From an uncultured Methanosarcinales archaeon (GTDB lineage Archaea > Halobacteriota > Methanosarcinia > Methanotrichales > Methanotrichaceae): DNA of 10,051 nucleotides. Within the stretch, counting starts at the first letter, position 1; every line of letters starts with the position of its first letter. The notes beneath the pieces were generated by a model that did no database searches, was not told where the DNA came from, and saw only the letters and a program-made list of their open reading frames with translations. The stretch is taken from contig CALMJN010000046.1 in NCBI GenBank assembly GCA_937864385.1, positions 1-10,051 on the forward strand, read 5' to 3'. The translations under genes were made by a program, and so were the position numbers. Shown here one piece after another: positions 1-10,051 of the stretch.

Positions 1-1
1 C

Positions 2-697
2 GGCCCCAGCCTCGACCGCGGTGTCATCTTCCAGGGCCACGCGCTGATGCCCTGGCTTACCGTGCTGGAGAACGTGTCGTTTGCGGTGAAGTCGCGCTGG
101 TCTTCATGGAACAAACACAAGGTGCACGACCACGCCATGCGCTACATCGAACTGGTCGGCTTGAAGGGCGCCGAGCACAAGAAGCCGTCGCAACTGTCGG
201 GCGGCATGAAGCAGCGCGTGGGCATCGCGCGCGCGTTTTCCATCGAGCCGAAAATGCTGCTGATGGACGAGCCCTTCGGCGCGCTAGATGCGCTGACGCG
301 CGGCGTCATTCAGGATGAACTGCTGAAGATTTGCGCGGAGACCCAGCAGACCGTGTTCATGATCACCCATGACGTCGACGAAGCCATCCTGCTGTCCGAC
401 CGCATCATGCTGATGTCGAACGGCCCGCACGCGCGCATCGCCGAAATCGTCAACAACACCCTGCCGCGTCCGCGCGAGCGCAGCGCCATCCACAAGCAGC
501 CGCACTACTACCCGATCCGCAACCACCTGGTCGATTTCCTGGTGAGCCGGTCGAAGCAGTTCGGCGCCCTGCGTGACGCGCCCGACGCCCCCAGTTCGCC
601 CACCGTGTTCGATCCGGCCGATCTGGTCGAAGCCGAACCCGAAGTCGTTTCCACGCCGCCTGTGGGCAAACCCCACATCCACCTCGTCAACGCTTAA
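2..697 (+). CDS. ABC transporter ATP-binding protein, nitrate/cyanate type (5' partial)
   Basis: ATPase subunit of a NrtD/CynD/SsuB-type importer that would power uptake of nitrate, cyanate or a similar small anion from the cytoplasmic face. The frame is open from base 2, so the N-terminus with the Walker A motif lies outside the window. Visible in order are the Q-loop region (FQGH, about 32-43), the ABC signature LSGGMKQ (194-214), Walker B LLMDEP (257-274) with the D-loop GALD, and the H-loop ITHD (362-373). The tail (HYYPIRNHLVDFLV, then a Pro/Glu-rich end) resembles that of nitrate-transporter ATPases. The stop lies 12 bases before cyanase, so the two are probably co-transcribed; from this context I infer cyanate or nitrate as substrate. 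Family confidence is high, substrate confidence moderate. Confidence 0.9.
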   Translation, partial: GPSLDRGVIFQGHALMPWLTVLENVSFAVKSRWSSWNKHKVHDHAMRYIELVGLKGAEHKKPSQLSGGMKQRVGIARAFSIEPKMLLMDEPFGALDALTRGVIQDELLKICAETQQTVFMITHDVDEAILLSDRIMLMSNGPHARIAEIVNNTLPRPRERSAIHKQPHYYPIRNHLVDFLVSRSKQFGALRDAPDAPSSPTVFDPADLVEAEPEVVSTPPVGKPHIHLVNA

Positions 698-709
698 GGA
701 CTTTTAATC

Positions 710-1153
710 ATGACCCGCACCGAAGTCACCGACCTCATCCTCGCCGCCAAACACAAGAAAGGCCTCAAGTGGGCCGACATCGCCAAGAAAGTCGGCCAGA
801 GCAAGGAATGGACAACCGCCGCGCTGCTCGGCCAGATGACGCTCGACAAGAAGCAGGCGACGACCGTCGGCAAGATGCTCAATCTCCCCGCCGAAGCGGT
901 CGACCAGTTGCAGATGGTGCCGTACAAGGGCAGCCTGCCGAGCGCGGTGCCGACCGATCCGCTGATCTACCGCTTCTATGAACTGATCATGGTGTACGGC
1001 ATAACCATCAAGTCGCTGATCCACGAGGAGTTCGGCGACGGCATCATGAGCGCGATCGATTTTTCGATGGATATCTCGCGGGTGGAGGATCCAAAGGGCG
1101 ACCGGGTGAAGATCGTCCTGAACGGCAAGTTCCTGCCGTACAAGATGTACTGA
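710..1153 (+). CDS. cynS: Cyanate hydratase (cyanase)
   Basis: Cytoplasmic cyanase converts cyanate and bicarbonate to ammonia and CO2 (via carbamate), which detoxifies cyanate and supplies nitrogen. The protein has 147 residues, close to the usual 150 or so (E. coli 156). The N-terminal half is the helical, helix-turn-helix-like domain (residues 1-75). The C-terminal cyanase domain has YRFYE at 87-91 and GIMSAIDF at 111-118, giving the catalytic triad Arg88, Glu91 and Ser114, equivalent to E. coli Arg96, Glu99 and Ser122. It ends LNGKFLPYKMY, as cyanases do. An AAGGA ribosome-binding site (696-700) overlaps the stop of the ABC ATPase gene and sits 9 bases before the ATG. The gene is intact. 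Its stop is only 4 bases from the stop of the convergent EAL gene. Confidence 0.97.
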   Translation: MTRTEVTDLILAAKHKKGLKWADIAKKVGQSKEWTTAALLGQMTLDKKQATTVGKMLNLPAEAVDQLQMVPYKGSLPSAVPTDPLIYRFYELIMVYGITIKSLIHEEFGDGIMSAIDFSMDISRVEDPKGDRVKIVLNGKFLPYKMY

Positions 1154-1157
1154 TCGG

Positions 1158-1672
1158 CTAGCCGCCGCGCAGCAGGGATTCGAACGCGTCCGGCGGCAGC
1201 GGCTGCCCGAACAGATAGCCCTGCGCATAATCGCAGCCTGCTGCAGCCAGCAGGCTGCGCTGCCCCTCGGTTTCCACCCCTTCCGCGATCACCTTCAGCC
1301 CCAGTTCGTGCGCCATCATGATGATCGCGCGGGACAGGGCCATGTCGTTGGGGTCGGTTTCGATGTCGCGCACGAACGAGCGGTCGATTTTCAGGTAGTC
1401 GATCGGAAACTGCTTCAGATAGGACAGCGAGCTGTATCCGGTGCCAAAATCGTCGATGGCAATCTGGATGCCGGCGTCGCGAAAGCGGAACAGCAGGTTG
1501 GTGACGTCGGCATGCACGTTGAGCAACAGGCTTTCGGTAATCTCGACGATGAGGTTGGCCCCCGACAAGCCGATGTCCTGCAGATGGCTCAGCCATGCTT
1601 CCGTTTGCATGCGGCCTGCGGTACGGAACTGCACCGGCGACATGTTGACGCTGACCTGAAAATCCGCGCCGA
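1158..1672 (-). CDS. EAL-domain protein, c-di-GMP phosphodiesterase type (N-terminally truncated at junction)
   Basis: This is the C-terminal two thirds of an EAL domain, which hydrolyses cyclic di-GMP to pGpG. From the junction it reads QVSVNMSPVQF, then VEITES, IDDFGTGYSSLSYLK, LKIDRSFV, AEGVET and QGYLFGQPLP, so the metal-binding and catalytic core after the EAL motif is intact. The EAL motif itself and any upstream GGDEF, PAS or membrane part are missing, because homology stops at about 1655-1672 where archaeal cupin sequence starts in another frame. An in-frame ATG at 1643 exists, but it lies inside the conserved NMSPVQF segment and is not the true start. The upstream boundary given here is approximate. 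Full-length proteins of this type usually carry a sensor region before the EAL domain. Confidence 0.9.
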
Positions 1673-1680
1673 ATGCACCG
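1655..1680. other. Junction A: betaproteobacterial-like DNA meets archaeal-like DNA
   Basis: On the minus strand the cupin frame keeps its second cupin motif (GDSYSAPSGAVH) down to about 1673. The EAL domain frame becomes recognisable from about 1672 (FGADFQVSVNMS). The two genes are in different frames and read in the same direction, so one is cut at its C-terminal end and the other at its N-terminal side. GC content visibly drops from this point rightwards. No transposon end, target duplication or attachment site is seen. I infer an assembly or cloning chimera. Confidence 0.8.
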
Positions 1681-1924
1681 CTCCCGATGGAGCAGAATAG
1701 CTGTCGCCCGGCCCCAGATCAGAGCTTTTGCCATCCACGCTCAACCGAATCCTTCCCGAGACCACATATCCCGCCTGGTCCTGGGGGTGAGAATGGCCGG
1801 GGATCTCGACTCCCTTCTCCAGATCAAAACGGCAGATCATCAGCCTTTCATCGCTTACCAGAGTTCTGCGGGCCAGGCCGGGAAGCATCTCCACGACCTC
1901 TGCCCGGTCATAGAAAAAGAACAT
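1673..1924 (-). CDS. Small cupin-domain protein (C-terminally truncated at junction)
   Basis: Single-domain cupin, a small beta-barrel fold that usually binds a divalent metal; the substrate cannot be told. Residues 1-84 or so are visible. Cupin motif 1 is GHSHPQDQAGYVVSG (about residues 43-57), with the His-x-His pair but Gln where many cupins have Glu. Motif 2 is GDSYSAPSGAVH (about 73-84), with its His. The last strands are lost: after about 1673 the frame runs into EAL-domain DNA and yields an unrelated tail ending at 1589. The ATG follows the stop of inositol-phosphate synthase with no gap (TAG then ATG), so translation is probably coupled. A regulatory or enzymatic role near inositol metabolism is possible but only inferred. 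Confidence 0.8.
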
Positions 1925-9457: not shown

Positions 9458-9523
9458 AACTCTATCTTATAACGATTAACTTTTTCCGGTAAGTGGAATA
9501 TCTCCCTTATCCCGTGATAAACC

Positions 9524-9539
9524 TCATGCAAGGGCATGA
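9524..9539. promoter_or_regulatory. Palindrome in the divergent gap before osmC
   Basis: TCATGC-AAGG-GCATGA is a perfect 6-base inverted repeat with a 4-base spacer. It lies in the 150-base gap between the divergent cyclic-nucleotide-fold and OsmC genes, 69 bases before the OsmC start. This suits a dimeric repressor or activator site, but function is inferred only. Confidence 0.3.
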
Positions 9540-9607
9540 AAAGCGCCTGTCACCTTTTCCACAATTTTGCATCAAAGAACTGAAAACACTAATTCGGAGA
9601 GTTTATT

Positions 9608-10003
9608 ATGGACATGATCATTGATTTTCCGGGCGGCGCCCGGGTGGACGCTCATTTTGGACCATACACGGTCGCGACGGATCAACCCCCGGCCGGCGGC
9701 GGGCGCGGCCTTGCGCCAACCCCCTTCGCAGTATTCCTTTCCAGCCTGGGCACCTGCGCGGGTATCTATGTGCTGGGCTTTTGCCGCCAACGCAACCTGC
9801 CCACTGAAAACATCCGCATCGTACAGCGAGTACACGCCAACCCCTCCACCGGTCTGATCGATAATGTCGAAATGGAGATCCAGTTACCCCCAGAAATACC
9901 CGAGAAATATCACAAAGCCCTGATCCTATCTGCTGAACTCTGCAAAGTTAAACAACAGATGGCCGCCCCGCCTGAATTCAACATCACCACCCGTACGATC
10001 TAA
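9608..10003 (+). CDS. OsmC-family protein (thiol peroxidase type)
   Basis: OsmC/Ohr-fold proteins reduce organic and other peroxides through two cysteines and are often dimers in the cytoplasm. The 131 residues are close to the usual 130-145. LAPTPFAVFLSSLGTCAGIYVLGF (35-58) carries the N-terminal catalytic-type Cys50 at the start of the central helix. ALILSAELCKVKQQM (104-118) carries the second, Cys112; the spacing of 62 fits the family. An extra Cys59 lies in the helix. The ATG has GGAGA (9596-9600) 7 bases upstream, and a strong terminator follows. The gene is transcribed alone, divergent from the cyclic-nucleotide-fold and NifU-type pair. The substrate could be a peroxide or another thiol-reactive compound; some YhfA-like members have no proven activity. 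Confidence 0.9.
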   Translation: MDMIIDFPGGARVDAHFGPYTVATDQPPAGGGRGLAPTPFAVFLSSLGTCAGIYVLGFCRQRNLPTENIRIVQRVHANPSTGLIDNVEMEIQLPPEIPEKYHKALILSAELCKVKQQMAAPPEFNITTRTI

Positions 10004-10008
10004 CACTC

Positions 10009-10040
10009 AAACCGGTCTCCCTTGGGAGACCGGTTTATTT
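10009..10040 (+). terminator. Intrinsic terminator after osmC
   Basis: AAACCGGTCTCCC (10009-10021) and GGGAGACCGGTTT (10024-10036) are perfect inverted copies. The centre forms a CTTG loop. The stem is followed by TTTATTTTTC. It starts 5 bases after the stop and is symmetric enough to work in both directions. Confidence 0.9.
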
Positions 10041-10051
10041 TTCGCGACTTC

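What the first reader, a model, noticed from the sequence alone, without database searches (positions are those of the whole stretch)
1..10051. The window joins DNA of three apparent sources
Left part: high-GC proteobacterial cyanase/ABC/EAL genes. Middle 6.6 kb: methanogen-type genes (DUF2111, archaeal inositol-phosphate synthase) with TATA-like boxes and TTG/GTG starts. Right part: bacterial genes with hairpin terminators and an Anaerolineae look. Both borders cut genes on both sides without any mobile element. An assembly or library chimera is the simplest explanation. Any neighbourhood conclusion across the borders would be false.
Basis: partly seen in the sequence, partly recalled or inferred. 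Interest (0 to 1): 0.7.

Follow-up and report, generated by a model that had tools for sequence, protein, structure and literature searches.

The report
Chimeric contig in a Methanothrix bin
This 10-kb contig from a draft methane-making archaeon's genome has foreign bacterial DNA stuck to both ends of a genuine archaeal piece, almost certainly an assembly error, so gene neighbourhoods across the two joins mean nothing.

Summary
The window is one whole contig (C46) of a 489-contig draft genome whose nearest relatives are Methanothrix. Bases ~1668-8362 are collinear with a Methanothrix contig at 94.5-95.3% identity (L004) and a second at 84.7% (L003), and have the genome's own tetranucleotide profile. 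At both ends a Methanothrix gene that relatives keep whole is cut and runs mid-gene into bacterial DNA. The left 1.66 kb is betaproteobacterial in type (ABC ATPase, cyanase, EAL). The right 1.69 kb is bacterial, probably Anaerolineaceae (half an Lgt-like gene, NifU-like, cNMP-binding, OsmC). Each flank is further from the genome's tetranucleotide mean than any of 154 background pieces. Cyanase and EAL occur in 0 of 25 other genomes of the genus. No repeat, tRNA or mobile gene was found at the joins. At the right join 18-20 bases fit both parents, which suits a short-word misjoin by an assembler. A natural double insertion is very unlikely but cannot be excluded without reads. The archaeal middle is ordinary. 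Artefact, low interest.

The parts
1..1667 (.). Left foreign piece, betaproteobacterial type
   Evidence: Tetranucleotide distance larger than in any of 154 background pieces, GC 0.614; in relatives only ABC-ATPase cross-hits at 184-418; cyanase and EAL in 0 of 25 other genomes of the genus
2..697 (+). ABC transporter ATPase, nitrate/taurine-like, 5' cut by the contig end
   Evidence: PF00005; best NCBIfam TIGR01184 ntrCD, below its cut-off
710..1153 (+). cyanase (cynS)
   Evidence: PF02560 + PF21291; relatives with taxon names are Thiobacillus, Sulfuriferula, Pseudomonadota
1158..1667 (-). 3' part of an EAL-domain gene, 5' part lost at the left join
   Evidence: PF00563 profile positions 83-236 of 236; homologues run on upstream where the window does not
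1655..1676 (.). Left join (interval in which it lies)
   Evidence: Methanothrix homology ends at 1668, EAL homology at 1655-1673
1668..1924 (-). Cupin gene, 3' end lost at the left join
   Evidence: PF07883 profile positions 3-46 of 70; whole in L004, L010, L021, L006
1668..8362 (.). Genuine Methanothrix segment
   Evidence: Collinear with L003 and L004; normal tetranucleotide profile
1925..3181 (-). inositol-1-phosphate synthase (ORF as called; start not verified)
   Evidence: PF01658; Methanothrix relatives 71-97%
3195..4079 (-). 294-aa protein without family match, conserved in Methanothrix
4116..4592 (-). GNAT acetyltransferase
   Evidence: PF00583
4597..5004 (-). DUF2111 protein (archaeal family)
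   Evidence: PF09884
5030..6301 (-). argininosuccinate synthase (ORF as called; start not verified)
   Evidence: NCBIfam NF010392 above cut-off
6305..7399 (+). radical SAM protein
   Evidence: PF04055
7509..7769 (+). Hfq-like small protein
   Evidence: PF17209; DNA relatives in the genus
7985..8353 (+). Protein with a hydrophobic N terminus (secreted by look), 3' end lost at the right join
   Evidence: No Pfam match; runs on to a stop about 30 residues later in L003 and L004
8332..8362 (.). Right join (interval where both parents fit)
   Evidence: Methanothrix homology to 8355-8362; exact runs 8330-8349 with L003 and 8335-8352 with L004; Lgt-like homology from about 8332
8363..10051 (.). Right foreign piece, bacterial, probably Anaerolineaceae
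   Evidence: Tetranucleotide distance larger than in any of 154 background pieces; no hit beyond 8355 in 20 relatives
8332..8676 (-). 5' half of an Lgt-like gene, rest lost at the right join
   Evidence: PF01790 profile positions 9-117 of 240; 211-aa relative P0161, 78% over 91%
8721..8969 (-). NifU-like protein
   Evidence: PF01106
8966..9457 (-). cyclic-nucleotide-binding protein
   Evidence: PF00027; P0001 98%, P0029 named Anaerolineaceae 54%
9608..10003 (+). OsmC-family protein
   Evidence: PF02566

Best explanation
The contig is an assembly chimera. A genuine 6.69-kb Methanothrix segment was extended by the assembler at both ends into sequence of two unrelated bacteria, presumably from the same sample. 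Binning then put the contig into the Methanothrix bin because two thirds of it is Methanothrix. Shown here: three origins, cut genes, border positions. Inferred: that the assembler walked through short shared words (18-20 bases fit both parents at the right join; only 6-8 bases are supported at the left), and the binning step. The joins carry no biological function.
For: The middle is collinear with L003 and L004. At the left, homology of four relatives stops at 1668 although their contigs go on (L004, L010, L011, L021); at the right, three relatives stop at 8355-8362. The cut Methanothrix genes are whole in relatives: the cupin in L004, L010, L021 and L006, the right-hand gene in L003 and L004. 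The bacterial genes are cut at the same points: EAL has profile positions 83-236 of 236, Lgt-like 9-117 of 240, while P0161 is longer. Each flank lies beyond all 154 background pieces in tetranucleotide use; all four middle pieces are ordinary. The three left genes have no AGA/AGG codon and GC3 0.83-0.88, the middle genes GC3 0.57-0.69. Cyanase and EAL occur in 0 of 25 congeners and only in this contig of the own genome as readable. The chimeric Lgt frame has its only near-identical copy on this contig: P0160, 1 member, 1 contig; next hit 78%. No repeats of 12 or more bases in 1400-1950 or 8100-8600. Chance longest shared word between two genomes of this size is ~22 bases by formula. Literature, passages only: shared k-mers lead to chimeric contigs (PMC7299287); [quoted passage not shown]
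Against: No reads or depth were available. The sequence directly beyond either join in relatives was not found elsewhere in the own genome, so no rival contig with the 'correct' continuation was seen; contigs under 3 kb read as N (17 of 60 fetched). Genes lying 2.1-4.8 kb beyond the left join in L010 do have counterparts on other own contigs (C10, C113, C114; 67-83%), which fits a true neighbourhood elsewhere but could also be paralogues. The bacterial side of the right overlap is judged from protein similarity, because no bacterial parent DNA was found. The left overlap (6-8 bases supported) is short for a k-mer misjoin. GC3 of the right genes (0.60-0.64) is not different from the middle's.
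Confidence: 0.85

Rival explanations
1. The chimera arose in the laboratory (ligation or amplification joining DNA fragments of different organisms), not in the assembler.
For: Explains two unrelated partners and the small overlap (6-8 bases supported) at the left join.
Against: Single chimeric molecules are rare and would seldom be assembled with 1.6-kb flanks on both sides (general knowledge, no call); the 18-20-base overlap at the right join fits an assembler better.
Confidence: 0.11
2. Natural horizontal transfer: bacterial DNA of two donors inserted into a Methanothrix chromosome on either side of this segment.
For: Transfer from bacteria into methanogens is known in general (recalled). 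The contig is continuous, without N.
Against: Two donors within 6.7 kb; each join cuts a gene on both sides; no tRNA, mobile-gene family among 16 frames scanned or repeat; no cyanase or EAL in 25 congeners; in 20 relatives the flanks find only ATPase cross-hits in 10 and 76 Methanothrix-side bases in 1.
Confidence: 0.02
3. A bacterium acquired a 6.7-kb Methanothrix segment.
For: Bacterial DNA lies on both sides.
Against: The flanks differ in GC (0.614 against 0.524), GC3 (0.83-0.88 against 0.60-0.64) and relatives, so one bacterium is unlikely to be the host; the segment starts and ends mid-gene.
Confidence: 0.01

Closest known systems
Chimeric (inter-genome misjoined) contigs of metagenome assemblies
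   Same: Pieces of unrelated organisms joined mid-gene, no mobile element seen, a short word fitting both sides at one join, in a bin of 489 contigs
   Different: Two foreign partners on one contig; assembler and reads unknown
Methanothrix sp. contig JAGOLL010000018.1 (L003) and Methanosaeta sp. UBA80 contig DAWB01000045.1 (L004)
   Same: Same gene order over about 1668-8362, at 84.7% and 94.5-95.3% DNA identity
   Different: Neither carries the flanks; the right-hand gene is whole in both and the cupin gene in L004 (L003's contig ends within the cupin gene)

Membership tests
Chimeric metagenomic contig | Segments of different taxonomic origin on one contig | tested here: met
Chimeric metagenomic contig | Joins fall inside genes that relatives keep whole | tested here: met
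   cupin and right-hand Methanothrix gene; Lgt-like gene; EAL gene
Chimeric metagenomic contig | Junction absent from independent genomes | tested here: met
   0 of 20 relatives carry the flanks beside the segment; chimeric Lgt frame on one contig only; left junction word in 0 viral contigs (a weak test). Large metagenome collections were not searched for the junction DNA
Chimeric metagenomic contig | Short shared word at the join | tested here: inconclusive
   Right: 18-20 bases fit both parents; left: 6-8 bases supported; bacterial parent DNA not found
Chimeric metagenomic contig | Depth step or missing read pairs at the join | not testable with these tools
   no reads held
Horizontally transferred island | Integrase, transposase, tRNA or flanking repeat at the border | tested here: not met
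Horizontally transferred island | Foreign DNA flanked on both sides by host DNA | tested here: inconclusive
   Both foreign pieces run to the contig ends, so their outer borders cannot be seen
Methanothrix genomic segment (middle) | Collinear with other Methanothrix and with the bin's composition | tested here: met

The most novel reading that the evidence does not exclude
A real Methanothrix lineage took up cyanase/EAL DNA of a betaproteobacterium and an Lgt/NifU/OsmC stretch of an Anaerolineaceae partner by illegitimate end joining at short microhomologies (6-8 and 18-20 bases) on either side of an argG segment.
Probability: 0.02. Interest if true: 0.5.

Novelty: not a real feature. Interest (0 to 1): 0.05.

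Why it matters
As an artefact it matters only as a warning. The bin is scored 0.67% contaminated, yet this contig would hand a methanogen a cyanase, an EAL-domain protein and an Lgt-like protein. Its cyanase and EAL hits are the only ones in 26 genomes of the genus, so a gene-content survey would report a false gain. The contig should be cut at about 1668 and 8350 and only the middle kept in the bin.

Tried and rejected
Natural insertion was considered and set aside (no repeat, tRNA or mobile gene seen at the joins; two unlike donors). A search for the true continuation elsewhere in the bin found nothing directly adjacent; L010's genes 2.1-4.8 kb further out have counterparts on C10, C113 and C114 at 67-83%, not pursued. 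Attempts to find the bacterial parents' DNA failed. Viral contigs gave no relative for the cNMP-binding protein or P0161 and one distant EAL protein (38%). Plasmids gave no record covering 80% of the left piece; the best covers 59% at 72.9% DNA identity. The EAL fragment's best plasmid hits are 55% in protein (capped at 5000 records; 13 of the 15 rows shown are Burkholderiales). These serve for kinship, not for the parent. Paper searches: searches gave assembly papers, of which two were looked into by passages; one search gave one paper, listing and abstract start only; two searches found none.

Failed or superseded computations: one search's tetranucleotide part was void because masked contigs gave empty counts (its codon counts stand); redone. 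One search stopped on an error before its alignments. One search's EAL alignment was in a wrong frame, redone (one search's Lgt alignment stands).

Full report
What the window is. The window is the whole of contig C46 (10,051 bases) of a draft genome of 2.26 Mb in 489 contigs, 93.41% complete and 0.67% contaminated by the figures given. By its inositol-phosphate synthase gene the nearest relatives are Methanothrix (Methanosaeta) genomes, 97% and 93% identical in protein for L004 and L003.

The middle is Methanothrix. Blastn of the window against 34 of the 80 loci gives one unbroken match of 1679-8359 to L003 (84.7%) and two matches of 1668-6561 and 6704-8362 to L004 (95.3% and 94.5%), in the same order. 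Other Methanothrix loci cover parts of the same stretch at 66-82%. No listed match lay wholly left of 1750 or wholly right of 8250. Of 20 relatives searched whole with 1600-8400, 19 match. The four 1,660-base middle pieces sit within the tetranucleotide spread of the own genome: 130, 127, 148 and 55 of 154 background pieces are at least as far out.

The flanks are foreign to it. The left piece (GC 0.614) and the right piece (GC 0.524) are each further from the genome's tetranucleotide mean than all 154 background pieces, taken from 43 readable contigs (286,647 bases) of 60 fetched; the other 17 read as N and were dropped. The left genes use no AGA/AGG codons and have GC3 0.83-0.88, against 0.57-0.69 in the middle; the right genes' GC3 (0.60-0.64) does not differ from the middle's. 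In 20 relatives the left piece finds only ATPase-core cross-hits at 184-418 (10 relatives, 67-79% identity), and the right piece finds only 76 bases at 8280-8355 in one. Cyanase (PF02560) and EAL (PF00563) occur in this contig and in 0 of 25 other genomes of the genus. Lgt (PF01790) occurs in 1 of the 25, a genome scored 6% contaminated. The fetched contigs under 3 kb of the own genome read as N, so 'absent elsewhere in the own genome' holds for readable contigs only.

Where the flanks come from. Of the 120 cyanase relatives listed (of 7998 scored), five carry a taxon name: Thiobacillus (P0115, P0118; 90% and 89%), Sulfuriferula (P0144, P0159; 86% and 85%) and Pseudomonadota (P0078; 92%). ABC ATPase and cyanase lie under one match in plasmids of Methylobacterium, Acetobacter, Bosea, Loktanella and a Rhodobacteraceae bacterium, and probably in Caballeronia, whose record is unannotated there. 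The EAL fragment's best plasmid hits are Burkholderiales (13 of 15 shown). So the left parent is most likely a betaproteobacterium near Thiobacillus or Sulfuriferula (inference). On the right, the cNMP-binding protein has a 98% relative on an unnamed 1-kb contig (P0001) and, among 39 listed, one named Anaerolineaceae at 54% (P0029). Anaerolineaceae is probable, not shown.

The left join. The window's cupin reads ...SAPSGAVHSA and then departs, where L004 reads ...SAPSGAVHSALALERSVVVDTFSPPREDYRNTGD; L010, L021 and L006 are also whole, while L003's contig ends inside this gene. The EAL frame is homologous from 1673 (Caballeronia) or 1661 (Ideonella) or 1655 (distant L170) downwards, and the residues upstream do not resemble those of the homologues. 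The Pfam match begins at profile position 83 of 236. L004 matches the window at 1668-1675 and again without a break from 1677. Only 6-8 bases of overlap between the two homologies can be supported.

The right join. The window's gene follows L003 and L004 to ...SSMRLI and then departs, while both run on about 30 residues to a stop. The Lgt-like frame follows P0161 from its start to ...MSRMLLPL, encoded down to 8332 (the local alignment runs four residues further, two of them matching). Exact runs with Methanothrix are 8330-8349 (L003, 20 bases) and 8335-8352 (L004, 18 bases). So 18-20 bases fit both parents. The longest word expected by chance between unrelated genomes of 2-3 Mb is about 22 bases by formula, so such a word needs no biology, and an assembler with a small k-mer can cross it. 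The chimeric Lgt frame itself was found on this contig only; the next hit is 78% identical.

Beyond the joins in relatives. L004 goes on to the right with an open frame of 540 aa and one of 231 aa (by eye a phosphoseryl-tRNA ligase and a ribose-5-phosphate isomerase, not tested). L003 and L004 share there only about 200 bases, around the rest of the cut gene. L010 goes on to the left with further genes, collinear in L011 and in part L021 and L005. Neither stretch directly beyond the joins was found in the own genome; L010's genes 2.1-4.8 kb further out have counterparts on own contigs C10, C113 and C114 at 67-83%.

Reading. No repeats of 12 or more bases lie in 1400-1950 or 8100-8600, no tRNA is in the window, and no mobile-element family was matched by 16 frames. 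Two joins to two unlike bacteria within 10 kb, each cutting genes on both sides, is what a misjoined metagenome contig looks like. Passages seen describe shared k-mers as a cause of chimeric contigs (PMC7299287) and low-to-intermediate-coverage species as those more often built into them (PMC7881036). Whether assembler or library made the joins cannot be decided without reads; the right-hand overlap favours the assembler. A natural origin would need two illegitimate insertions from two donors on either side of one segment, seen in none of 20 relatives.

Consequence. The middle genes are ordinary for the genus.

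Noticed in passing
window 3195-4079 (-): 294-aa protein without a Pfam or NCBIfam match; the DNA matches that hold inositol-phosphate synthase run on through it in many Methanothrix loci. Its second half looks like a Rossmann-type nucleotide-binding domain by eye only.
   Followed up: no
window 7509-7769 (+): Hfq-like protein in a methanogen (PF17209, 35.8 bits against cut-off 27; NCBIfam Hfq 37.5 bits, under its cut-off of 61.7); DNA relatives in at least 9 of 20 relatives searched.
   Followed up: no
L175 (G029:C185:2955-3698): A full-length Lgt match in one other genome of the genus, scored 6% contaminated: perhaps another bacterial contig in an archaeal bin.
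   Followed up: no
G000, contigs under 3 kb: 17 of 60 contigs fetched from the own genome read as N, all shorter than 3 kb, so 'not found in the own genome' does not cover them.
   Followed up: partly
window 1925-3181 (-): The inositol-phosphate synthase matches only the mycothiol-type INO1 model TIGR03450 in NCBIfam, under its cut-off (474.7 against 638); relatives at 63-68% also lie in bins named Deltaproteobacteria, Nitrospira and Aquificota.
   Followed up: no
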